This document shows positions 28,615 through 40,309 of a stretch of 40,309 nucleotides of DNA, piece by piece. The translations under genes were made by a program, and so were the position numbers. The notes under the pieces were generated by a model. It was not told the origin of the DNA. It saw only the letters and a program-made list of their open reading frames with translations, and did no database searches. Each line of letters begins with the position of its first letter. Position 1 is the stretch's first letter. The stretch is from Bacteriovoracaceae bacterium (GTDB lineage Bacteria > Bdellovibrionota > Bacteriovoracia > Bacteriovoracales > Bacteriovoracaceae), in contig JAGLPP010000074.1 of assembly GCA_023137315.1 (NCBI GenBank), forward strand, positions 1 through 40,309. The letters run 5' to 3'.

Positions 28615-29064
28615 ATGGATAGAAATTTACTAAAAAAATTAAAAGAGGAAAAAGAAAAACTTCTGGATTCAATCACCAGATCCGAGATGAAACATCTCGA
28701 CAATAAAAGCATCATGGTTATTGATGACTCCGAGGAAACAATTTTCATGATGTCCACTTTCCTGAAGAAGACCGGCCAATATAATGTCAAAACATTCGTA
28801 AACGAATTTGAGGCGCTTGAAGAAATCGCCAAACAGGCTCCTGATCTTATTGTTCTTGATGTTATGCTAAAGAACACTGACGGAATCAAGTTTGCCAAGG
28901 CAGTCGGAGGCCTGGATGTTTTTCGCGGCCCCATTGTTTTTATTTCTTCCAACGCCAATTTTCATAATGATATTATACAGACTTTCGGTGCCAACACACA
29001 CTTTATGGCAAAGCCACTGGACACAACAAAATTCACGAATCTAATAGTGGAACTTCTTAAATAA
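28615..29064 (+). CDS. Response regulator receiver with N-terminal helix
   Basis: The 149-residue protein starts with a Lys/Glu-rich helix of about 28 residues, followed by a receiver domain with Asp37/Asp38 (VIDDSEE), phosphoacceptor Asp82 (VLDVMLKN), a serine in FISSN and the KPLD lysine. No output domain follows. ATG 28615 follows AGGG by 6 bases. It ends one base before the end of a convergent receiver/PilZ-like gene, placing it in a cluster of phosphorelay genes. Confidence 0.85.
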   Translation: MDRNLLKKLKEEKEKLLDSITRSEMKHLDNKSIMVIDDSEETIFMMSTFLKKTGQYNVKTFVNEFEALEEIAKQAPDLIVLDVMLKNTDGIKFAKAVGGLDVFRGPIVFISSNANFHNDIIQTFGANTHFMAKPLDTTKFTNLIVELLK

Positions 29065-29065
29065 T

Positions 29066-29758
29066 TTATTTCTGAAGCAACAACCAATGTCTTATGGCCA
29101 CATGCTCTTCCACTGACATCTCATTAAATTTTGCAGTGATTTCATATGCCCAATCCCTGTCCTGAATAAGTTGGACGCCTTTAACCTTTAACTTGATCCC
29201 ATTCAAACCAACTTCCTTCAACGTTGGAAACAAGACATCAAAAAGATAGTCCTTGGGAATGATTGCGTTGGAGAAAAAAATAACCTGCTCCTCCGTAATT
29301 TCCTTGAGCTTTATATTAAAATTAAAACTAATTGGTGAAAAATCCGCGGACGGGTTTACAGACAAGACAGGAAGGGAAAGCATACTGCCGGATTTCATAA
29401 CCACATTAATCTTGTCTGAAAGAATATCCATATCAATCGGTTTGGTCACATAGTCATCGGCACCAATCTCCAATGCCTTCAATATCACCTTTTTTTCCTT
29501 CAGTGTTGAAACAACAATAATCCTGACATTATCATGGAAATTGGTGTCACGAATTTCATTGATAAAAAATAATCCATTTCTACCGGGAAAAAGAAGATCC
29601 AGCAAAATAAGACGGAAATCATGCTCCCTCATCAATTCAAGAGCATCCTCTATGGAATAAGCCGACTTACACAGAATATTCCTGCGATTGAAAAATTCAG
29701 TAAGCAAAAATTGTGTTTCTTCACTATCCTCAACGATAAGTATTTCAAACTTTTCCAT
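29066..29758 (-). CDS. Response regulator with PilZ-like C-terminal domain
   Basis: The 230-residue protein has a receiver domain (Asp11, phosphoacceptor Asp54 in LLDLLFP, Thr/Ser in VVST, Lys106 in VTKPID) followed by a domain of about 110 residues whose strand pattern and spacing (SFNFNIKLKEI..., VGLNGIKLKVKGVQL, closing helix HWLLLQK) resemble PilZ without a clear RxxxR c-di-GMP motif. Its first 14 bases lie within the upstream receiver/PilZ-like gene, so the two are translated together. It probably works downstream of the HPt protein. Confidence 0.75.
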   Translation of the reverse strand: MEKFEILIVEDSEETQFLLTEFFNRRNILCKSAYSIEDALELMREHDFRLILLDLLFPGRNGLFFINEIRDTNFHDNVRIIVVSTLKEKKVILKALEIGADDYVTKPIDMDILSDKINVVMKSGSMLSLPVLSVNPSADFSPISFNFNIKLKEITEEQVIFFSNAIIPKDYLFDVLFPTLKEVGLNGIKLKVKGVQLIQDRDWAYEITAKFNEMSVEEHVAIRHWLLLQK

Positions 29759-30464
29759 CTTTCCCCGTCTTCCTCTGGCAGTTTTTATACATCCACTTTC
29801 TCAAATGTTGCAAACAACTTTCAGATACCCCTGGCAATATACATTTTGTCTTGTACCTGTATCTTGAATGCGACAATCCTTGTGAACGTACAGGCTTCAA
29901 CACCCCGGTTCCATAATGGATATCTTCAAGAATGGCAGAGGAATTCACGCTCAACGTAATATTATCATTAAAGGAATAATCGCTGGCAAAAACCAAATTT
30001 GTCTCACCAAGTCCCATCACGGCCCCTGTCCCTGAGACGACTCCTTTTGACTTTTTATCATTACGATTAAATTTATAACAAAGTTCATTTTTTTCAAGAT
30101 CATAAAAAATGATCTTTAATTTATTCAAGAGAACTTTCCAATCCACCGGTTTTAGAACATACCCGGAAACACCTCTATCCATGGCCGTATGGATCACCTC
30201 TTTATCATTTATCCCGGAAAAGACCAGTACTGGAATATTTGCAAGATGTTTGATCTTTCTTATACTTGCCAGAAGTTTGAGTCCGTTGATCTTCGGCATG
30301 AGCATATCAAGCAAAATAACATGTGGTGGATGTTTTATAAGATGATCGCATGCCTGTGTTTCATCCGAAATACAAAAAACCTCGTATCTTTCGCTGCGAA
30401 GAATACGCTCGATCAACATTACCTGCTCTTCACTATCATCAATAACTGTTATATATCTTTTCAT
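29745..30464 (-). CDS. Response regulator with PilZ-like C-terminal domain
   Basis: The 239-residue protein has a receiver domain with Asp9/Asp10 (VIDDSEE), phosphoacceptor Asp53 (LLDMLMP), Ser in VFSG and the LKPVD lysine, then a domain (about 125-225) with the PilZ-like motif pattern GAVMGLGETNLVFASDYSF. The RxxxR motif is not evident, so c-di-GMP binding is doubtful. It starts 3 bases after the HPt stop. A very basic tail (about 205-239, many Lys, Arg and Cys) follows. Confidence 0.75.
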   Translation of the reverse strand: MKRYITVIDDSEEQVMLIERILRSERYEVFCISDETQACDHLIKHPPHVILLDMLMPKINGLKLLASIRKIKHLANIPVLVFSGINDKEVIHTAMDRGVSGYVLKPVDWKVLLNKLKIIFYDLEKNELCYKFNRNDKKSKGVVSGTGAVMGLGETNLVFASDYSFNDNITLSVNSSAILEDIHYGTGVLKPVRSQGLSHSRYRYKTKCILPGVSESCLQHLRKWMYKNCQRKTGKDGKV

Positions 30465-30467
30465 TTT

Positions 30468-30818
30468 TTAGTCTTTTAGAAATTTTTCAATTTCACTTAT
30501 TAGATTTTCAATGTTGGCCTTGAAATCACCATAATGTATTTTAATATCATCCATATTATTTGTTTCTATGGTTTTTTCAAAATCCTCCGCCATTTCAATG
30601 AGTTTCGTTACATGAAAATTCGCAACTGTTCCCTTCAGTGTATGAACAACACGGTACATCTCTTCAAAATCACATCCACCATTTATATTATTTTCAATAC
30701 ACCCAATCCTTTCAGGATAATTTTTCCTGAAAATCTTAAAATATTTTGAAAACAATTCCATGTCTCCACCGAAGGACTCCACTATTTTTTCAACATCAAT
30801 TGATATAACGTCATTCAC
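30468..30818 (-). CDS. Histidine phosphotransfer (HPt) domain protein
   Basis: The 116-residue helical protein carries the phosphorylatable His59 in RVVHTLKGTVANF, the classic HPt motif. It should pass phosphate between a hybrid kinase and receivers such as those in the same operon. The start is GTG 30818, with GAGGAG 5 bases upstream. Two 8-base direct repeats 10 bases apart lie 29 bases upstream (30847-30864). No histidine kinase is in the window, so the donor lies elsewhere. Confidence 0.85.
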   Translation of the reverse strand: MNDVISIDVEKIVESFGGDMELFSKYFKIFRKNYPERIGCIENNINGGCDFEEMYRVVHTLKGTVANFHVTKLIEMAEDFEKTIETNNMDDIKIHYGDFKANIENLISEIEKFLKD

Positions 30819-30905: not shown

Positions 30906-32684
30906 TCACTGCAAGGCTAAAGCAGGATCACCAAAAAAATTGGCCGTCCAAACAACCCATCTTGCTTCCTGATAATCAATATATCTCAAGATATCCTCCT
31001 TGGACTTTTGGTGGGCCACGCCAAACTCAAGATAATTATCATTCATCAACCTGTTGGTAAAATAACGATGCAGAATTTGTGAAGTGCCAGGGTATTGCAC
31101 CTGTCCATACTCAGGATCTTCAGGCCCCAGTCCGTACGCAGAATTCGCCACTGCCGCAAACGGGCCACCTTTTCCATAAACCATTTTCTCCACTATGGAA
31201 TCATTTTTTGTAAAAGCTGCTGCGAGGCAACCCTGTGAATAATAAAAATACGGCAATGTATTTTCAAAACCAGAATACAAAAAAGAGTTCACCCTCATAT
31301 TCATACTGGATGATGAGTGTCCAAGATGATTCACCACAAGTGGATTTTGTTTTTTTATAAGTGTTTTGGCCTCAGTTCCACTCCAACGCTTGACCTTGTC
31401 GTAAAGCGTATATTTTCTCCAGCTTTCATCAAATCCCCTGGTTACAAATCCATGATCATCAACTTCACCAAATAACTGATTAAGATAATCTCCTCCCCAA
31501 AGATCAAGCTCTCTGAAAAGCATTTCTCCAAGATTAATAACGGACTTTTCCCTTGATGGCGTTCTATATGTTTTAAGTGTTTTTGCCACAACGGATTTTA
31601 ATTCAGTGGTTTTATCCACAGGCCAGCGCCCAACGGTGACTTCACAAAGAAAATCTACATCCCCACCATCTTCACCGTCATTGGATTCGCCCCATTTGTT
31701 ATCATTATCTCCGTTAAAAGTACCGTCAAGACAACCATAATAAAAATCCGCCACAATGTGTTCCTTGATATCTCTCCAGGAACCATTGTATCCACGAATC
31801 TCGGAATAAAGTTTTCTTACCGGTATGGTCGGAGAGCTGCCATCTGAATCACCAGCTATAAGGACATATCTGATACCACTTTGCTCATATTCCCTACGAA
31901 TGAAGTTTCGCAGTTTCTGCGCATTATCCACCCCGCTCCCTGAACCTGTCGCATCAGTGACATTAACAATTTTTACCTTAAGTCCCTTTTCATTTTCAAG
32001 ATAGTCCTTGAAAACATGGAGACTGTTCTCCCCTTTATACGAAATCAATTCTAAAGATGTGATAATCAAATAATCATAACCTGCCATGTTCTTTTCGTTG
32101 GAATAATCATAAGTCGAAAAAATTTCAGGATTGGGATTATCAACAAATTCCAATATTTCATCAAAAAATCTTGCCTTGTGTGTAGTTCCTTTGTCCTCGC
32201 TGTAATTAATAGTGATCTTAATCTCACGAGTCGAAAAGACCTCCTTTTGTGGAGTCACATAAACAGGGAAAATATTGGCCGTAAGAATTCTATGCCCGTG
32301 AAATTTTTGCATTTTTTTTGAGCCAATCACATCCGGCCATGTCTTCTCAAGAATAATATCTTCAAAACGACCTTCCTTAACATCCGTAAATGGATATTTC
32401 GGGGCAAGTTTCAATTTTGCAGCATCTGAAACAATAAATGGATGCGCCCTTTGAACCTTCACCGTCTCAATCCGTGCGTTTGCAGGCAAAAGCATCTTAA
32501 TTGAATCCATGGGAAGCATGGGCATGCCAGGTCTTTGGGACAAGGCAAGTCCTGGTATTTTTATCAACTGATCATCACCGGACTGAACAACAACAGGCCT
32601 TTCAAAACGATAGCGAAAAACCATTTCTGCAGAGAATGTAATTTGGGAAAACAACAAAATCGAAAGCAAACAAATAAGTTTCAT
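30906..32684 (-). CDS. Gingipain-family (C25) cysteine peptidase
   Basis: The 592-residue precursor has a signal peptide (1-19, ending FSA). The N-terminal half (about 20-190) is the propeptide-like beta domain seen in C25 proteins. The catalytic domain shows the DYLIIT start, RYVLIAGDSD, the FYYGCLDG/DNDNKWGE segment, catalytic His456 in NHLGHSS and Cys486 in YYSQGCLAAAF, and it closes with GDPAL. Downstream Ig-like and sorting domains found in Porphyromonas gingipains are absent. The ATG 32684 has AAGGATGG about 5-7 bases upstream; an in-frame ATG at 32753 would precede the signal peptide. It is probably a surface or secreted peptidase supplying peptides to PepT. Confidence 0.85.
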   Translation of the reverse strand: MKLICLLSILLFSQITFSAEMVFRYRFERPVVVQSGDDQLIKIPGLALSQRPGMPMLPMDSIKMLLPANARIETVKVQRAHPFIVSDAAKLKLAPKYPFTDVKEGRFEDIILEKTWPDVIGSKKMQKFHGHRILTANIFPVYVTPQKEVFSTREIKITINYSEDKGTTHKARFFDEILEFVDNPNPEIFSTYDYSNEKNMAGYDYLIITSLELISYKGENSLHVFKDYLENEKGLKVKIVNVTDATGSGSGVDNAQKLRNFIRREYEQSGIRYVLIAGDSDGSSPTIPVRKLYSEIRGYNGSWRDIKEHIVADFYYGCLDGTFNGDNDNKWGESNDGEDGGDVDFLCEVTVGRWPVDKTTELKSVVAKTLKTYRTPSREKSVINLGEMLFRELDLWGGDYLNQLFGEVDDHGFVTRGFDESWRKYTLYDKVKRWSGTEAKTLIKKQNPLVVNHLGHSSSSMNMRVNSFLYSGFENTLPYFYYSQGCLAAAFTKNDSIVEKMVYGKGGPFAAVANSAYGLGPEDPEYGQVQYPGTSQILHRYFTNRLMNDNYLEFGVAHQKSKEDILRYIDYQEARWVVWTANFFGDPALALQ

Positions 32685-32802
32685 AAAACCATCCTTGGTT
32701 AATAACGTAATCATAGTTGAAACTACTAATAGGATACACAAAACCGTGCACAATTTTGAACATTTTTATCTTACAAAATTAAACAGTAAAAAACAGACGT
32801 AT

Positions 32803-35800
32803 CTACTCACTTATTTTTGATATGGTTGAAAAGCTGGGCACATGTCTTTTAGGCACCTGTAGATCATCCAAATCAGTCAGGTAAAACTTCTTACATGATG
32901 TAATGTCGGTTTCAGCACTGACTTTCGCAGTTTCGTTAATACCAACAATTTTCTCATATCCTGGAAAATCACATGCAATTTGACGTCTGATTTCCTCTAA
33001 TGATAATTCCTGCCCCTTAAGATGCTTATATATTCCACCTAAAATCTGATATCCAAAAAGATCAGGACCTTTGAACACCTGGGAAAAATCCTTGATTTTA
33101 TTCTCCTGGGTTGTAACCGATCCGCATGATTCTGCGTAGCTGGTACCTGGAATGGCAACATTAACAAAATCCATGGACATATTCTTATACATGTCAATCA
33201 TGACAGCGAATTTCATTCCAGTAAGAATATTTCCCCATTCCTCGTCATAAAACGGATCTTCCCCGAATATCAAGACACCTTTGATCTTTCCAGTCTTTAA
33301 CATCTCCTTGAGCTGAGCAGCAGTTTTGGCACCTTTAAGATCTCCATACTTCTTTGCTGATTCACCAAAAAATGCGGCCTCTGGATAAACACCAAGATTG
33401 AAGTACCCCTGCATATTTGAGTGTGGATAGGAAAGAAGAAGTCCATTTCCAGGAAGTGATGATCTGCCGATTGCAAACAGAACATTATATATGCTTGGAA
33501 GATCACCATATGCCTTATCCAACCTGCAAAGAGGACTGTAAACAAATACAACTTTTTTATCAGGATCGGAAAACGTATCAACAAGGGAATCAATCTCACT
33601 TGAACTTACCCCTATTGTTTCGTGAATATTCGTTTCCATATCCAGAATCAATGACAGAAACTCATTTCCATTTTCCATTTTTTGCACATTTTCTTCAATT
33701 TGTGCCGGATTTTTTTGGTAAATTCTTCTCAATACCTCATATAAAAGCATTGATGTTGTTCCCCTTCTGTTATTTATCCACTGTGTGGCAAACGTGGCCG
33801 TTTTGTTGGAAACGGAACTTATTGCGACTATCTTTTTGCCGGAGTTATATGCGCTGGCCAGAGAAAAACCTGTAACAGGGTTGTCTTTGTAAATATCGAC
33901 ATTAATCAAAACAATCGTATCGGCATTGTTAAAATCCTCATTATCAGCACTAGGCCCGAGTATTTTCATAAAATCCGGTGACCATTTTGGGTCTCTTGCC
34001 TCAAGATCATAGAGACAAGCAATATTATTTGTCGAAAAAACATCTCTAGCCAGTTTCTGTGCCACAAATAATTCTTCATTTGTTGACTTGGGAGAAATTA
34101 AGACAGCAACGCTTTCCGGGCCGTATGTCCTGGCAATTTCGGAAATCCCATTTGCGGCTTCCTCCATTGCACGATGTACGGAAACCTCTTTAACCTTTGA
34201 ATCATTACGTAAATACGCCTTTTCAAGCCGGTTATCACGGAGATAGTGCCTTTGATTAAATCTTCCATTAACACACAATCTCGATGTCAGATTCCCTTCA
34301 AGCTTCTTGCCGGAAACATACCAATAATCTTCATCTTTTTTATTGTAAACAAGTTCACAACCAACACTACAATTGTTGCAAACTGACTGTTTTTCCACTG
34401 TACCCTTGAACCATGGCAGTTCTTCCGAAACGTTGTATGTAATGGCCCCGGTTGGACAAACATCAATGCAGTTTCCACATCCTATACAATTTGTATCCTC
34501 AAGCTTTCGCCCCATGACCGGCCTTACAATCATTTCATTTCCTCTTCCAACAAGTCCCAAAGCCGCCACTCCGAGAATGCTTTCACAGGTTCGAACACAT
34601 CTTCCGCACAAAATACATTTATTCGGATCAAGTCTGATAAATTGATGACTCTTGTCCTCTTCGTATTTATTTACCTTGCCACCACTGTACCTTGTCTGTT
34701 GTGCACCATATTCAGTGGCATATTTTTTCAACTCGCACGTATATACATCTGTACATCCACAAGTAAGACATCTTTCAACCTCGTCCTTTAAATCATCCTC
34801 ACTTATCCCTGCATCAACTTCATCAAAATTCTGAATCCTCTCATATGGATCCTTTTGTATCATTTTGGCACGCTTGGTTTTTTCAAAGGAATCAAAATAT
34901 GACTGTGGTATTTCCGACAGATTTTCCTTACGACTTATAAATTCATAAAACGGATTTTTCAGTTCTCCGGTCTTTAAATATTCATCAATAACCGCCGCAA
35001 CCTTTCTTCCTGCACCAATGGCATCAACAGCGGCCATCGGTCCTGTTACCGCATCTCCGGCCGCAAAAACCCCCTTTAAATTGGTGGCATATGTTTTTTC
35101 GTCGGCATTGATACTTCTCCATGCAGTTTGTTCCATGGTTCCCAGCGAATCATCCTTAAGAAAATCATTCTCCACATTCTGACCAATGGCAGAGATGATA
35201 TAATTGCATAATATTTCGTATTCACTTCCCTCTATTGGCACAGGTCTTCTTCTACCGGAGGAATCAGGTTCACCCAACATCATCTTCCGACATTTTAGTG
35301 CTTGAAGAACTCCGTCTTTTTCCACCGCTTCAAGTGGGGCAACAAGATAATCAATGATTACCCCCTCTTCAAGCGCATCATTTATTTCAACCTCATCAGC
35401 AGGCATCTCCTGCTTTGTTCTTCGATATAATACCCTGACTTCCGAAGCACCTGTTCTCAGTGCAGTTCTTGCAGCATCAATTGCAGTATTGCCTCCACCA
35501 ACAATCAAAACTGTTCCTTTTGTCTCGGAAATTTTTCCCTTTGTTGTCCGTTCAAGAAAATCTATACCACTTTCAATCTGCTGATTTTCTTCATTCATTA
35601 TTCCCATTTTTTTGGCACCCTGTGCCCCCACAGCAATAAACACTGCCTCAAAACCGGAATCCTTGAGTTTCTTGAGAGTGAAGTCCCTACCCCAGTCTTT
35701 AGCGGTTTCCACTTCAATTCCCAAGTCCAGAATCCTTCCAATCTCCTTGTCCAGGACTTTTTGTGGCAGACGATAATCCGGTATCCCGTATCTAAGCATT

Positions 35801-36492
35801 CCGCCAAGTTTGGGATGACGTTCAAGTATTTTAACACCATAACCTTTTTGAGCGAGAAAACAGGCGGCAGTCAATCCCCCTGGGCCTCCACCAATAACGG
35901 CAACTTTCTTACCGTTGGAATTAACTTTCTCACGGGCCGGGAGCTTGTCAGAAACAAGATCCGCCACATAACGCTTGATAAAATTCGCCGCAACCGGGGA
36001 ATCTATATCATTTCTTCTACAGGACGCCTCACAATACCGAACACATATCCTTCCACATACCGACGGAAACGGATTTGTCTCCGTGATGGTTTTTAACGCC
36101 TCATCGTATTTTCCGTCCTTCGCATAAGTTAAATATCCCTGGACATCCACATCGGCAGGACACTTTTGATAGCATGGCCCGCGACAATCAGCATAATGAT
36201 TTGAAAGCAGCATTTCCAGGGCATTTTTTCTCGCCTGGACGACCTTCTGTGTCCTTGTATGAACGACCATTCCTTCCTGAACCTTGGTCGTACACGACAA
36301 CGGAAGTTTGGACATTTTTTCAATTTCCACAACACATAAAAGACATGATCCAATGGGAGGAAGACTTGGGTCATGGCAAAGAGTTGGAATTTCAATCCCG
36401 TTTTTTTGTGCGGCCTCTAAAATTGTACTGTCACAATCAACTTCAATTTTTTTACCGTCAACCAATAACGTTACTTTCTTTTTCAGTTTCAT
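32803..36492 (-). CDS. NuoG-like/GltD-like fusion: large iron-sulfur flavoprotein subunit of a soluble redox complex
   Basis: The 1229-residue protein has, in order, a 2Fe-2S ferredoxin domain (Cys39, 50, 53, 67), a GltD-type 4Fe-4S segment (Cys103, 107, 111 and Cys146, 150, 154, 158), an FAD domain (GGGPGG at 201-206), an NAD(P)H domain (GGGNTAIDAARTALRTGASEV, YRR at 356-358, as in NADP(H)-using GltD/NfnB), GVFAAGD (474-480), an extra Cys cluster (575, 578, 580, 586), a double ferredoxin (Cys626, 629, 632, 636 and 669, 672, 675, 679) and a molybdopterin-fold domain (about 700-1229) with its 4Fe-4S Cys705, 708, 712, 740. The formate dehydrogenase active-site Sec/Cys-His pair is missing (CLYDLEARD in that region), so that domain is probably an electron conduit as in NuoG. 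It follows nuoF after two bases. Confidence 0.85.
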   Translation of the reverse strand: MKLKKKVTLLVDGKKIEVDCDSTILEAAQKNGIEIPTLCHDPSLPPIGSCLLCVVEIEKMSKLPLSCTTKVQEGMVVHTRTQKVVQARKNALEMLLSNHYADCRGPCYQKCPADVDVQGYLTYAKDGKYDEALKTITETNPFPSVCGRICVRYCEASCRRNDIDSPVAANFIKRYVADLVSDKLPAREKVNSNGKKVAVIGGGPGGLTAACFLAQKGYGVKILERHPKLGGMLRYGIPDYRLPQKVLDKEIGRILDLGIEVETAKDWGRDFTLKKLKDSGFEAVFIAVGAQGAKKMGIMNEENQQIESGIDFLERTTKGKISETKGTVLIVGGGNTAIDAARTALRTGASEVRVLYRRTKQEMPADEVEINDALEEGVIIDYLVAPLEAVEKDGVLQALKCRKMMLGEPDSSGRRRPVPIEGSEYEILCNYIISAIGQNVENDFLKDDSLGTMEQTAWRSINADEKTYATNLKGVFAAGDAVTGPMAAVDAIGAGRKVAAVIDEYLKTGELKNPFYEFISRKENLSEIPQSYFDSFEKTKRAKMIQKDPYERIQNFDEVDAGISEDDLKDEVERCLTCGCTDVYTCELKKYATEYGAQQTRYSGGKVNKYEEDKSHQFIRLDPNKCILCGRCVRTCESILGVAALGLVGRGNEMIVRPVMGRKLEDTNCIGCGNCIDVCPTGAITYNVSEELPWFKGTVEKQSVCNNCSVGCELVYNKKDEDYWYVSGKKLEGNLTSRLCVNGRFNQRHYLRDNRLEKAYLRNDSKVKEVSVHRAMEEAANGISEIARTYGPESVAVLISPKSTNEELFVAQKLARDVFSTNNIACLYDLEARDPKWSPDFMKILGPSADNEDFNNADTIVLINVDIYKDNPVTGFSLASAYNSGKKIVAISSVSNKTATFATQWINNRRGTTSMLLYEVLRRIYQKNPAQIEENVQKMENGNEFLSLILDMETNIHETIGVSSSEIDSLVDTFSDPDKKVVFVYSPLCRLDKAYGDLPSIYNVLFAIGRSSLPGNGLLLSYPHSNMQGYFNLGVYPEAAFFGESAKKYGDLKGAKTAAQLKEMLKTGKIKGVLIFGEDPFYDEEWGNILTGMKFAVMIDMYKNMSMDFVNVAIPGTSYAESCGSVTTQENKIKDFSQVFKGPDLFGYQILGGIYKHLKGQELSLEEIRRQIACDFPGYEKIVGINETAKVSAETDITSCKKFYLTDLDDLQVPKRHVPSFSTISKISE

Positions 36493-36494
36493 TT

Positions 36495-38264
36495 TCAGTC
36501 CTTTAATATCGCTTCAAATCGACAACTTGAATAACATTTTCCGCATTTTATACATTTAAGAGGATCAATTACATGCAACTTCTTTGGCTCTCCACTAATG
36601 GCCCCGACAGGACAACTTTTAATACAAAGTGTGCATCCTTTGCATTTATCGGCATCAATTGTGTAGTCAATCAACTGTTCACAGGAATGTGCCGGACATT
36701 TTTTATCAATGATATGAGAGTCGTATTCATCTCTGAAATATTTGATGGTTGTAAGAACAGGATTTGGTGCAGTTTGTCCAAGTCCACATTGTGCCGTACT
36801 TTTTATGTATTCCCCAAGTTCCTCCATCCTCTCTATGTCACCTTCCTTTCCTTTTCCACTTACAATATTCTCCAAAGTCTCCAACATTCTAAGCGTACCA
36901 ACCCGGCAACTTGTACATTTTCCGCAGGATTCCCTTTGAGTGAATTCAAGGAAAAAACGGGCCAGCTCAACCATGCAGGTCGTCTCATCCACAACAATCA
37001 TTCCACCGGACCCCATAATTGCGCCAGTCATATTGATTTTCTGGTAATCAATCTGAATCTCGCCCATACTGGCCGGAATACATCCACCTGAAGGGCCTCC
37101 CATCTGTACGGCCTTGAAATTCCTGTCATCCTTGATACCTCCACAGATATCAAAAACAATTTCGTTTATCGTAATGCCCATTGGAACTTCAACAAGACCG
37201 CTACGCTTTACCTTGCCTGCCATCGCAAAAACCTTAGTTCCACGACTTTCCTGCGTTCCAAGTTTGGAATATTCCGAAGCACCGTTTCTAATAATCCATG
37301 AAATATTGGCAAATGTTTCAACATTGTTGATATTGGTTGGTTTTCCCCACAGACCGCTAGTGGCCGGAAATGGTGGCCGTATTCTTGGCGTCCCTCTTTG
37401 TCCCTCAATGGAAGCGATTAATGCAGTTTCCTCACCACAAACAAATGCTCCCGCACCTTCTTTAATTTTAATATCGAAGGAAAACGAACTGCCTTGAATA
37501 TTCTCACCAAGAAAGCCGTGCTCCCTGGCTATCTTTATAGCATGTTCAAGTCTGTTAATTGCACGCGGATATTCAGCACGACAATAGATGATTCCAGTCT
37601 GCGCACCAATGGCAAGACCGCAAATTATCATCCCTTCAAGAACCGAATGCGGGTCTCCCTCTAAAACACTTCGATCCATGAACGCACCGGGATCACCTTC
37701 GTCGGCATTACAGACGACATATTTTTCATCACCGACGGCCTTCTGTGCAAAACGCCATTTTTGTCCGGTAAGAAAACCAGCCCCGCCCCTGCCACGAAGT
37801 CCTGAGTTTAAAATTAATTCAATAATTTCATCAGGGGTCATTTTGATGGATTTTTTCAAAGCCTCATAACCGCTGGCATTAATATAATCCTTAATTGAAA
37901 GTGGATCAATTCTTCCGCAATTTCCCAGTACAATGCGCTTTTGCTTTGCAATGAAATCACTTTCAGGGCCTTCACTTTCATTTTTTATTACAATCCATTC
38001 ATCAACAGGTGTGTCGGATAAAATGTGTTTTTCAAAAATTGTACGGGCCATTTCCGGAGTCACATCCCCGTACAGAAACGATCCGTCCTTGCTTAAAACA
38101 TTTACTAAAACTTCCCTGTAGCAAACCCCCATACATCCGGTTTCACCAATTTTAACATTCACCGTCCCCTTGGCATCTTCAACCATGGAATGAAAACACT
38201 CAAGGACCTTGTCAGCACCGGCTGAAATACCACAGGTACCTGTTCCAACAATAATTTCTTTCAC
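36495..38264 (-). CDS. NuoF/HydB-like NADH-binding flavoprotein subunit
   Basis: The 589-residue protein has the extended form seen in bifurcating hydrogenases and formate dehydrogenases: an N-terminal thioredoxin-like 2Fe-2S domain (Cys11, 44, 48), the FMN/NADH region (GLRGRGGAGFLTGQKW at 156-171, CNADEGDPGAFMDRS, FVCGEETALIASIEGQRG), a 4Fe-4S site (Cys447, 450, 453, 493), two cysteines at 523 and 528, and a C-terminal double ferredoxin (Cys541, 544, 547, 551 and 571, 574, 577, 581). It oxidises or reduces NAD(H) with FMN. The start overlaps the end of the nuoE gene by 4 bases (ATGA), and the stop is two bases from the next ATG. Since there is no hydrogenase, this family member is not itself evidence for hydrogen metabolism. 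Confidence 0.92.
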   Translation of the reverse strand: MKEIIVGTGTCGISAGADKVLECFHSMVEDAKGTVNVKIGETGCMGVCYREVLVNVLSKDGSFLYGDVTPEMARTIFEKHILSDTPVDEWIVIKNESEGPESDFIAKQKRIVLGNCGRIDPLSIKDYINASGYEALKKSIKMTPDEIIELILNSGLRGRGGAGFLTGQKWRFAQKAVGDEKYVVCNADEGDPGAFMDRSVLEGDPHSVLEGMIICGLAIGAQTGIIYCRAEYPRAINRLEHAIKIAREHGFLGENIQGSSFSFDIKIKEGAGAFVCGEETALIASIEGQRGTPRIRPPFPATSGLWGKPTNINNVETFANISWIIRNGASEYSKLGTQESRGTKVFAMAGKVKRSGLVEVPMGITINEIVFDICGGIKDDRNFKAVQMGGPSGGCIPASMGEIQIDYQKINMTGAIMGSGGMIVVDETTCMVELARFFLEFTQRESCGKCTSCRVGTLRMLETLENIVSGKGKEGDIERMEELGEYIKSTAQCGLGQTAPNPVLTTIKYFRDEYDSHIIDKKCPAHSCEQLIDYTIDADKCKGCTLCIKSCPVGAISGEPKKLHVIDPLKCIKCGKCYSSCRFEAILKD

Positions 38265-39316
38265 TTCTGTTTTCCTTTTGGTTTGTATTGTTTTAATATT
38301 TTTCTGAGTTTTAACGGAGTCAATCTTCCGTAAGTTTGATCATTAATAGTGATAACAGGCGCAAGACTGCAACAACCCAGACACGCAACAAGCTCCAGCG
38401 TAAATAGCCCATCATCGCTGGTATCACCACCCTCGAATTGAAGCTCATCCTCAATAATATCTTTTAACATTTTGGAATTATTTACGTGACATGCAGTACC
38501 GTCACAAAGCCTTATAAGATACTCTCCCACAGGTTTTAAGCGAAACTGCTTATAAAATGTAACCACTCCATAAATCTGACTTTCAGGTATCCGCGTCACC
38601 CCGCTTATATACCTTATGGCCTTTTCCGAGACATAGCCTGCGTCCTCCTGAGCCTTCTGTAAAAGTGGAATTAACTGACCTGGTTTTTTGTCATACTTCC
38701 ACAACTCATAGTTTATTTTTCCAATCCTTTCATCGGGCGACTCCATTCCCATTTCGAACATTTCAATAATATTAACTTTCCTGGCCCTGATGACACCATC
38801 AATCTGCCAGATTTTATCCTGTATCAATTCGTCGAGACACGGAAAGTCGGTTCCATTAACAAGAAGAACCATACCATACCTGCCAGAGGTGACATCACAG
38901 GAGACAACACCATCCATGAGGTACAGTTGCGAACAAATCCTATCCAATTTTTCTTTTTCGATTTCAAGAAAAACGTAAGCCGATACCGATGATTGTCTTA
39001 AAACCTCTTTCTCTTCCTTGCTGGGACTATGAACCCCTTCATGGATTCGTATCGGCATATAATCAATTTCGGTAATTTCATCCATGGTTTTAAGTTTTCC
39101 ATCAACAAAATTTTGAATATCCTTTTCCATGCAGGCATTTAACAACAGAACGATGTCATATTCCTCCCTTACGGCATCACAATACTGAACACAATCCTGA
39201 AAATAAAGATCCTTGTATACTTTTTGAAAATCAGCATTGCCATCAAGTCTTAAAAATGCGTAAGTGCTGAATGAATGTTTTTCTGTTTGAGCAGTCGTTG
39301 TATTATTTAAATTCAT
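38261..39316 (-). CDS. NuoE-like 2Fe-2S subunit with two N-terminal Lrp/AsnC-type RAM domains
   Basis: The 351-residue protein is a fusion. The C-terminal 160 residues are NuoE-like, with the 2Fe-2S cysteines Cys271, Cys276 (CDGTAC) and Cys312, Cys316 (CLGCC) in their usual spacing. Residues about 15-90 and 110-185 are two copies of one pattern (hydrophobic strand, helix, V..CD...G.YDIVLLLN, helix, strand), which matches the ligand-binding RAM domain of Lrp/AsnC regulators; no DNA-binding helix-turn-helix is present. RAM domains bind amino acids and form dimers or octamers, so an allosteric amino-acid-sensing role is inferred. It follows pepT after 16 bases, with GAGGTGG before the ATG. Confidence 0.85.
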   Translation of the reverse strand: MNLNNTTTAQTEKHSFSTYAFLRLDGNADFQKVYKDLYFQDCVQYCDAVREEYDIVLLLNACMEKDIQNFVDGKLKTMDEITEIDYMPIRIHEGVHSPSKEEKEVLRQSSVSAYVFLEIEKEKLDRICSQLYLMDGVVSCDVTSGRYGMVLLVNGTDFPCLDELIQDKIWQIDGVIRARKVNIIEMFEMGMESPDERIGKINYELWKYDKKPGQLIPLLQKAQEDAGYVSEKAIRYISGVTRIPESQIYGVVTFYKQFRLKPVGEYLIRLCDGTACHVNNSKMLKDIIEDELQFEGGDTSDDGLFTLELVACLGCCSLAPVITINDQTYGRLTPLKLRKILKQYKPKGKQK

Positions 39317-39332
39317 TTTACCACCTCATATC

Positions 39333-40309
39333 CTAATCTGTACTTTTTTCAACCCAAATCTGCGCCAAATTCAAAAGAGTTTCTACGGTTTTTCCCAATG
39401 AGTCAATGGAAACCAACTCCGTTCGTCCATGATAATTGGCACCACCCATAAAAATATTCGGTGTGGGTATCCCCATTGCTGTCAACGTGGCACCGTCTGT
39501 TCCCCCACGTATGGGTTTCCAGACCGCAGTCATCCCAGTTCTATCCACCGCCTCGACAAGATTGTCCAAAACTTCGGGACAGGTCTCCAGTTTTTCCCTC
39601 ATATTCCTGTAAGACGGCTCAATACGCAGTTCCACATTTATCCCCGGATAGGACTGCCTGATATTTTCAATAATTTTTTCCAGCGTATTCATATGTTTTT
39701 TTAATCCAAGCGTGTCAAAATCCCTGAAAAGCAGCTTGATAGTGGCCTTTCCAACAGAAGCGTTCAAGTCACATGGATGAATGAAAGGCTCGTATTCATC
39801 AGTGGTCTCCGGGCACATATCCTTTGGCAGCCATGAGATTAAATCAGAGGCCGCCCTGACGGCATTAATCATTTTGCCTCTGGCCGTCCCCGTATGAATA
39901 TCCCTCCCGAAAATTGTAACAACAGCGGTATCGGCCGAAAAAGTTTCCTTGTTAATAACTCCCGAAGCACCGCCATCAACAGTATAGGCGCATTTAACCT
40001 GGAACATGTCCTTGTTGAGATACTTCATTCCCTTTCCTACTTCCTCGTCGGGATTGAAACATATCATGATATCACCGTGAAGAATTTCAGGTCTGTCCCG
40101 CATTAGTTCCAATGCCATCATAATTGCAGCGATTCCGGCCTTGTCATCCGCACCAAGAAGTGTTTTTCCATCTGTGGTCACAATCGTATGTCCGACACTT
40201 TGAGACAATATTGGATTTTCCAATTCCCTTATGATGATATCTTCAAGGGTTACCGGATCAACCCCTATGGAAATATCACCTCCTTCGTATTTGATAACAT
40301 TCGGAGAAA
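39333..40309 (-). CDS. pepT: Tripeptidase T-like zinc aminopeptidase (5' end beyond window)
   Basis: The reading frame continues without a stop to the right edge (residues reading ...YEGGDISIG... upstream of the visible TTG at 40223), so the N-terminus is not in view. The visible part shows metal ligands of the M20/PepT type: GADDKAG, NPDEEVGKG and the TVDGG aspartate, plus RDIHTGTARGKMINA and ANYHGRTEL near the end, which holds the C-terminal histidine ligand. PepT releases the N-terminal residue of tripeptides. Position directly before the NuoEFG-like genes ties peptide use to their redox function. The assignment to PepT rather than another M20 peptidase rests on these motifs. Confidence 0.87.
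   Translation of the reverse strand, partial: SPNVIKYEGGDISIGVDPVTLEDIIIRELENPILSQSVGHTIVTTDGKTLLGADDKAGIAAIMMALELMRDRPEILHGDIMICFNPDEEVGKGMKYLNKDMFQVKCAYTVDGGASGVINKETFSADTAVVTIFGRDIHTGTARGKMINAVRAASDLISWLPKDMCPETTDEYEPFIHPCDLNASVGKATIKLLFRDFDTLGLKKHMNTLEKIIENIRQSYPGINVELRIEPSYRNMREKLETCPEVLDNLVEAVDRTGMTAVWKPIRGGTDGATLTAMGIPTPNIFMGGANYHGRTELVSIDSLGKTVETLLNLAQIWVEKSTD

What the first reader, a model, noticed from the sequence alone, without database searches (positions are those of the whole stretch)
32803..36492. NuoG-like and GltD/NfnB-like modules fused, with a molybdopterin-fold domain lacking the formate dehydrogenase active site
One polypeptide holds 2Fe-2S, GltD-type 4Fe-4S, FAD, NAD(P)H, ferredoxin and Mo-fold domains. 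The expected Sec/Cys-His of formate dehydrogenase is absent, so electrons probably leave by ferredoxin or NADP(H) and not formate. This suggests a soluble NADH:NADP(H)/ferredoxin complex, perhaps flavin-based bifurcating, built from HydABC-like parts but without a hydrogenase.
Basis: partly seen in the sequence, partly recalled or inferred. Interest (0 to 1): 0.68.

Follow-up and report, generated by a model that had tools for sequence, protein, structure and literature searches.

The report
Stn-type transhydrogenase with fused RAM sensor
The gene encodes the large subunit of a known kind of anaerobic enzyme that swaps electrons between NADH, NADPH and ferredoxin, and its operon carries an apparently undescribed add-on, a pair of amino-acid-sensor-like domains, that sits next to the same enzyme in many little-known bacterial phyla.

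Summary
In detail: 32803-36492 (-) is one 1229-aa protein with [2Fe-2S], GltD-type FAD/NADP(H), ferredoxin and molybdopterin-fold domains and no formate dehydrogenase active site. It is not a new kind. It is StnC, large subunit of the Sporomusa-type electron-bifurcating transhydrogenase StnABC (40% identical to solved StnC 8oh5_C, 43% to 9bov_A). Upstream lie StnB (36495-38264) and StnA (38261-39316). The dead formate dehydrogenase domain is the family rule: none of 78 StnC-like proteins with StnB beside them shows Cys/Sec-His, and all 7 that keep it lack StnB. The genome has no other PF00384 protein and no FdhD hit; it does encode an [FeFe] hydrogenase elsewhere. What I did not find described lies outside the given coordinates: StnA carries a ~190-aa N-terminal extension of two Lrp/AsnC-type RAM domains. 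The same tandem, often behind a response-regulator receiver domain, is a separate gene directly upstream of stnA in 48 of 48 other genomes where I found it (at least six phyla). I infer a dedicated regulatory subunit acting on the gating subunit StnA. The fusion itself rests on one assembly and one codon.

The parts
32803..36492 (-). stnC-like gene, 1229 aa: NuoG-like + GltD/NfnB-like fusion with inactive FdhF-like domain
   Evidence: 40% identical to S. ovata StnC over the 855-aa stretch compared, 43% to 9bov_A
36250..36480 (-). StnC [2Fe-2S] domain (aa 5-81; Cys39, 50, 53, 67)
   Evidence: Fer2_4; Cys shared with both solved StnC chains
35953..36189 (-). StnC GltD-type [4Fe-4S] domain (aa 102-180), with Lys173 = StnC K170 and Val117 = StnC C114
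35008..35910 (-). StnC FAD/NADP(H)-binding domain (aa 195-495), Arg241 = StnC R239
   Evidence: Pyr_redox_2
34438..34641 (-). StnC Nqo3-type double [4Fe-4S] ferredoxin domain (aa 618-685)
   Evidence: Fer4_Nqo3
33064..34392 (-). StnC molybdopterin-fold (FdhF/NuoG-like) domain (aa 701-1143), cluster Cys705/708/712/740 kept
33973..34017 (-). Position of the lost FDH active site (aa 826-840; Glu831-Ala832 align with Cys/Sec-His)
36495..38264 (-). stnB-like gene, 589 aa: Complex1_51K FMN/NAD(H) subunit with GRGGAGF loop (aa 158), DEGDPGAF (aa 188) and C-terminal double [4Fe-4S]
   Evidence: 9bov_B E=2e-245, 8oh5_B E=4e-245
38261..39316 (-). stnA-like gene, 351 aa: tandem RAM domains fused to a NuoE/StnA [2Fe-2S] thioredoxin-like domain
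   Evidence: ribosome-binding-like GAGGTGG 5' of the ATG
39038..39271 (-). First RAM domain (aa 16-93, modelled as beta-alpha-beta-beta-alpha-beta)
   Evidence: Pfam PF01037, two stretches in the extension; AlphaFold2 model pLDDT 84.9
38765..38986 (-). Second RAM domain (aa 111-184)
   Evidence: PF01037 aa 117-178, E=4e-12
38744..38752 (-). Fusion junction ATG GGA ATG (FEM-G-M): GGA stands where relatives ending in FEM have a stop; the second Met is the likely ancestral StnA start
   Evidence: against the alignment
38282..38704 (-). StnA/NuoE [2Fe-2S] domain (aa 205-345; Cys271, 276, 312, 316)
   Evidence: PF01257 E=8e-49

Best explanation
The three genes encode a Stn-type electron-bifurcating transhydrogenase. 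Step 1 (shown for S. ovata, inferred here from conserved residues): NADP(H) exchanges a hydride with FAD in the GltD-like part of StnC. Step 2: electrons pass through the StnC iron-sulfur chain to FMN in StnB. Step 3: the StnAB module splits or joins them between NAD(H) at FMN and ferredoxin at the StnB C-terminus, with the moving [2Fe-2S] domain of StnA as kinetic gate. Physiologically it would make NADPH from NADH plus reduced ferredoxin, or run in reverse. The FdhF-like domain is a structural remnant needed for assembly, not a catalyst. Step 4 (new, inferred): the tandem RAM domains form a regulatory module that binds a small ligand, probably an amino acid, and biases the StnA gate. In many relatives the same module sits on a receiver domain, so there the signal is probably phosphorylation as well. 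Here it is fused directly to StnA and there is no receiver.
For: Best PDB matches of the three subunits are StnABC or its close kin; A-B-C gene order. 27 Cys, covering the cluster motifs, are shared by the window protein and both solved StnC chains. K170 and R239, which matter for activity in S. ovata StnC, are K173 and R241 (PMC10482914). StnB has the FMN loop and the E/D motif. No StnC-like protein with StnB beside it shows the FDH pair, 78 rows. No separate NfnAB was found in the genome (only this gene and a YgfK-like one), as expected if Stn replaces Nfn. RAM module: PF01037; model pLDDT 84.9 with two beta-alpha-beta-beta-alpha-beta units; the stand-alone RAM protein 2djw matches one unit at TM 0.90, rmsd 1.2. 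Whole-genome searches with the RAM profile alone landed directly upstream of stnA, same strand, in 48 of 48 loci. Two clade members whose contigs were cut before stnA were predicted to have it and do (L148, L149). RAM loci fall in one StnC group, SH-aLRT 96.
Against: No activity, ligand or complex has been measured. C114 of S. ovata StnC is Val117 here (C114A halves activity there), although the paper notes Val/Ile in other homologues. The fusion is known from one MAG, and a single T-to-G change (TGA to GGA) would create it. Only this genome among 369 of its phylum has the RAM module. The RAM ligand is unknown, and the glycine/aspartate loop common in relatives is imperfect in the window (REEYD, SGRYG). 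That the module acts on StnA, and not on another partner, follows only from gene order and one fusion.
Confidence: 0.82

Rival explanations
1. A bifurcating or NAD(P)-linked formate dehydrogenase: the molybdopterin-fold domain binds bis-MGD and oxidises formate.
For: Molybdopterin fold and its N-terminal [4Fe-4S] site are kept. True GltD-FDH fusions with Cys-His or TGA(Sec)-His exist, one of them in the same family as the window (L052). The genome has a MoeA-like gene.
Against: Cys/Sec-His, the C-x-K-G Lys and the LRGQNN Arg are all replaced. No FdhD hit. S. ovata Stn shows no formate oxidation (PMC7483475).
Confidence: 0.02
2. The RAM tandem is an assembly or maturation factor for StnABC (NapD-like chaperone role) rather than a ligand-sensing regulator.
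For: Weak NapD matches of the RAM region in some relatives (E=8e-6 in L063, below the cut-off). The FdhF-like domain and its clusters matter for StnABC assembly (PMC10482914). Strict coupling to stnA, often with overlapping or one-stop junctions.
Against: PF01037 scores better in the window (E=4e-12) and in most relatives; a receiver domain with the phosphoacceptor Asp in all but one receiver-bearing relative argues for signalling; a permanent fusion to StnA is unusual for a chaperone.
Confidence: 0.25
3. The RAM proteins are transcriptional regulators that merely share the operon, and the fusion is accidental or an assembly error.
For: Lrp/AsnC RAM domains are best known from transcription factors; the fusion needs one base; L060, L061 and L063 have a sigma-54 response regulator downstream of stnC.
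Against: No DNA-binding domain in any RAM protein scanned. A soluble enzyme subunit carries the module in the window, and 48/48 separate copies sit next to stnA and not next to varied genes.
Confidence: 0.13
4. The enzyme has the same bifurcating core but an unknown third substrate, not NADP(H).
For: Bfu family members use many third substrates (PMC9304861).
Against: The GltD FAD/NADP(H) domain is full length and StnC-like, with K173 and R241 kept.
Confidence: 0.05

Closest known systems
StnABC, Sporomusa-type electron-bifurcating transhydrogenase (PDB 8oh5/8oh9; PMC7483475, PMC10482914)
   Same: Subunits, gene order, domain order, cluster ligands, inactive FdhF-like domain, K170 and R239 equivalents.
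   Different: StnA is 351 aa with a tandem RAM extension; the S. ovata StnA chain is 178 aa. C114 is Val. The window belongs to a separate group of mostly candidate-phylum enzymes.
PDB 9bov/9bp5, 1178-aa StnC homologue (length matches Caldicellulosiruptor StnC in PMC7483475; source organism inferred, paper not found)
   Same: Closest solved chain to StnC (43%); its StnB chain is as close as 8oh5_B.
   Different: StnA chain 176 aa, no RAM extension.
Nfn-Bfu of Thermococcus sibiricus (PMC9304861; probably PDB 9n5u)
   Same: NfnB-like domain on a BfuBC core; bifurcating transhydrogenase.
   Different: Shorter BfuA, lacks the A4 cluster and part of the C-terminal domain.
Bifurcating [FeFe] hydrogenase HydABC
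   Same: HydBC correspond to StnBA.
   Different: No H-cluster domain here; GltD domain instead.
GltD-formate dehydrogenase fusions (L052, L098, L103, L119, L088, L117, L133)
   Same: Same N-terminal [2Fe-2S]-GltD-ferredoxin-Mo-fold order.
   Different: Intact Cys/Sec-His and no StnAB neighbours.
Stand-alone RAM proteins of the Lrp/AsnC family (e.g. TTHA0845, PDB 2djw; Lrp family reviewed in PMC2995911)
   Same: RAM fold without DNA-binding domain.
   Different: Two in tandem, tied to a redox enzyme, often with a receiver domain.

Membership tests
StnABC transhydrogenase | StnC = NuoG-like + GltD/NfnB-like fusion with the cluster ligands | tested here: met
StnABC transhydrogenase | Conserved K170 and R239 of StnC | tested here: met
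   K173 and R241
StnABC transhydrogenase | HydBC-like StnAB module encoded beside StnC | tested here: met
StnABC transhydrogenase | FdhF-like domain without catalytic residues | tested here: met
StnABC transhydrogenase | Ferredoxin- and NAD+-dependent NADPH oxidation | not testable with these tools
   needs an enzyme assay
Formate dehydrogenase (FdhF/FdhA) | Cys/Sec-His at the Mo/W site | tested here: not met
   Glu831-Ala832
Formate dehydrogenase (FdhF/FdhA) | fdhD in the genome | tested here: not met
   PF02634: no match in own genome (95% complete); control rings in 8 of 14
Bifurcating [FeFe] hydrogenase HydABC | H-cluster domain (PF02906) in the large subunit | tested here: not met
   no such match in the protein; HydA lies on contig C24
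NfnAB | NfnA partner beside the NfnB-like protein | tested here: not met
   partners are StnA/B-like; the other GltD-type match in the genome is YgfK-like
Respiratory complex I (NuoG) | Membrane subunits encoded nearby | tested here: inconclusive
   not sought by profile; NuoG equivalog score 263 bits, under its 470 cut-off, and GltD insertion
Lrp/AsnC RAM domain | PF01037 match and beta-alpha-beta-beta-alpha-beta fold | tested here: met
Lrp/AsnC transcription regulator | N-terminal helix-turn-helix domain | tested here: not met
   no HTH match

The most novel reading that the evidence does not exclude
A group of StnABC transhydrogenases spread over at least six bacterial phyla has a fourth, dedicated signal-input subunit: tandem RAM domains, with or without a receiver domain. 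It controls electron bifurcation after translation by acting on the StnA gate in response to an amino acid and/or a histidine kinase. This would be a direct metabolic or two-component control of a HydBC-type bifurcating module.
Probability: 0.5. Interest if true: 0.75.

Novelty: new variant of a known kind. Interest (0 to 1): 0.5.

Why it matters
The core enzyme is a known route to NADPH in anaerobes. How electron-bifurcating enzymes are switched or biased inside the cell is largely open, and I know of no described regulatory subunit of the HydBC-type core. A small soluble module strictly linked to the gating subunit, and fused to it in one case, gives a specific and testable handle on that question. 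The clean split between StnB-linked proteins without, and unlinked fusions with, an intact formate site also documents how a formate dehydrogenase-like scaffold is related to a transhydrogenase subunit.

Tried and rejected
Formate dehydrogenase function: rejected. Absence of Mo-cofactor synthesis as an argument: failed, since a MoeA-like gene is present. 'No hydrogenase in the organism': rejected. A second RAM-StnA fusion in L091 (Myxococcales, 323-aa StnA): its extension is not alignable to the RAM profile (hhalign probability 0.4%) and its model is low-confidence (pLDDT 54; no fold match under E 0.001), although the predicted strand/helix order resembles two RAM units; left open. Aligning full-length StnA with mixed rows for modelling: MAFFT misaligned RAM and NuoE rows, so only the RAM part was modelled. 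Literature for 9bov: not found. Papers linking StnABC or AsnC-type domains with bifurcating enzymes and their regulation: nothing relevant in the held library.
Full report
What is there. The window's own assembly is a 3.15-Mb, 223-contig genome, 95% complete; the window is contig C196. Three genes on the minus strand, overlapping by four bases or 2 bases apart, read from 39316 down to 32803: a 351-aa NuoE-like protein, a 589-aa NuoF-like protein and the 1229-aa protein of the finding. The large protein has [2Fe-2S], GltD-type [4Fe-4S], FAD/NAD(P)-binding, Nqo3-type ferredoxin and molybdopterin-fold domains in that order.

What it is. The best solved relatives are 9bov_A (E=7e-219) and StnC of Sporomusa ovata, 8oh5_C (E=6e-192); for the middle gene 9bov_B and 8oh5_B; for the [2Fe-2S] part of the first gene 9n5u_C, 9bov_C and 8oh5_A. 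Identity of the large subunit is 43% and 40% over the stretches compared. StnABC is a published electron-bifurcating transhydrogenase: StnC is described as a NuoG/GltD fusion whose FdhF domain is catalytically inactive but needed to obtain the complex, and S. ovata Stn does not oxidise formate (PMC10482914; PMC7483475). 27 Cys, covering the cluster motifs, are shared by all three proteins, and so are K170 and R239, whose mutation lowers activity; C114 is replaced by Val.

The missing formate site. The Cys/Sec-His pair aligns with Glu831-Ala832; the Lys of C-x-K-G and the Arg of LRGQNN in the aligned formate dehydrogenases are also replaced. A scan of 84,980 species genomes gave 80 related loci. 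Together with same-phylum loci, none of the 78 rows with a StnB gene beside them shows the pair (8 end before the domain, and a few more are cut by contig ends), and the 7 rows with Cys-His or an in-frame TGA-His have no StnB gene. So the absence is a rule of the family. The sample is the best 80 of at least 593, hence biased to close relatives. The PF00384 and FdhD searches found no second formate-type enzyme; a MoeA-like gene is present.

Rest of the redox set. PF02906 places an [FeFe] hydrogenase with NuoE- and NuoF-like partners on contig C24. C27 reads as an Rnf cluster (my reading of the ORFs). The only other GltD-type match is a 1056-aa YgfK-like protein (the YgfK reading is mine). No separate NfnAB was found, which fits the report that Stn and Nfn are nearly mutually exclusive in acetogens (PMC7483475).

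What is unusual. StnA has a ~190-aa N-terminal extension matching the Lrp/AsnC ligand-binding (RAM) domain twice. A 9-sequence AlphaFold2 model has mean pLDDT 84.9 and two beta-alpha-beta-beta-alpha-beta units; Foldseek matches one unit to the stand-alone RAM protein 2djw at TM 0.90, rmsd 1.2, and to Lrp/AsnC proteins, and the whole more loosely to tandem alpha/beta-barrel proteins. No DNA-binding domain is seen. The nearest StnC loci have the same tandem as a separate gene just upstream of stnA, mostly 330-380 aa with an N-terminal receiver domain; the phosphoacceptor Asp is kept in all receiver-bearing copies aligned except L148.

How strict the link is. The StnC tree puts the window in a 12-member group, SH-aLRT 96, whose other members come from Coatesbacteria, Aminicenantes, Aegiribacteria/Fermentibacterales, Elusimicrobia, Fibrobacterota, Holophagae, Myxococcales, Zixiibacteriota and an unnamed bacterium (a quick tree, midpoint-rooted, with several long branches). 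Ten of the twelve had been labelled as having a RAM-type gene or an extension. The other two, L064 and L123, had contigs cut before stnA; a whole-genome search then found the full tandem beside a stnA gene in both. That search found the full tandem in 10 of the 11 other group members and in none of 30 genomes outside the group, where only weak single-domain matches appeared. The one miss is L091, whose StnA has an extension that I could not align. Searching with the RAM profile alone, blind to neighbours, in 396 genomes of the phylum of L061 and 132 of the phylum of L070 gave 38 further genomes with a hit. Over all three searches 48 of 48 loci have stnA immediately downstream on the same strand. 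In Zixiibacteriota the module lacks the receiver and often overlaps stnA by a few bases or is parted from it by one stop.

The fusion. In the window the codons run ATG TTC GAA ATG GGA ATG: several relatives end FEM-stop, so GGA stands for a stop and the following Met is the likely old StnA start. None of the 48 other loci is fused. The fusion could be a real event or a one-base error; the gene-order evidence does not depend on it.

How it most likely works. Core chemistry: inferred from a characterised relative with conserved residues; probability about 0.93 that it is a Stn-type transhydrogenase. Role of the RAM tandem: inferred from strict linkage and one fusion. StnA carries the mobile [2Fe-2S] domain proposed as the kinetic gate of bifurcation (PMC10482914), so a ligand- or phosphorylation-responsive module on it is well placed to bias NADPH production. 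I give about 0.5 to direct regulation of the enzyme and about 0.25 to an assembly role. The PepT-like peptidase 16 bp upstream of stnA on the same strand would fit an amino-acid signal, but that is speculation.

Verdict. The finding as given is a correct reading of a known family. The RAM module is a new variant on it, with no description found in the held papers, which leave out most subscription journals.

Noticed in passing
window 39333-40223 (-): M20/PepT-like peptidase 16 bp upstream of stnA on the same strand, perhaps the same operon; would fit amino-acid sensing by the RAM domains.
   Followed up: no
window 28615-30818: Cluster of three response-regulator receiver proteins and an Hpt-like protein (by reading), about 2 kb downstream of stnC beyond a C25 peptidase.
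   Followed up: no
window 30906-32753 (-): Gingipain-like C25 peptidase (PF01364, E=1e-38) about 50 bp downstream of stnC.
   Followed up: partly
L088, L117, L133: GltD-formate dehydrogenase fusions with an in-frame TGA at the Sec position followed by His, with no StnAB beside them.
   Followed up: partly
L052 (G086, same family as the window genome): GltD-formate dehydrogenase fusion with intact CARLCHAS motif in an open frame of 1645 aa that continues past the enzyme.
   Followed up: partly
L055 95-2797 (+) (own genome, contig C162): NuoE and NuoF fused in one 901-aa frame, followed by a 678-aa NuoG/HydA-like protein and a ThiF-like protein.
   Followed up: no
L054 (own genome, contig C24): [FeFe] hydrogenase cluster with a second HydA-domain protein (709 aa) and signalling-like neighbours.
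   Followed up: no
L060, L061, L063: Sigma-54-type response regulator downstream of stnC, with a PAS histidine kinase before it in L060 and L061; possible partner of the receiver-RAM protein.
   Followed up: partly
window StnA Cys46 and Cys140 (A2 alignment): Both RAM domains carry a Cys-Asp motif conserved in most relatives; a redox or metal role is possible.
   Followed up: no
L091 4251-5219 (+): Myxococcales StnA with an unrelated-looking ~150-aa N-terminal extension whose predicted strand/helix order resembles two RAM domains.
   Followed up: partly
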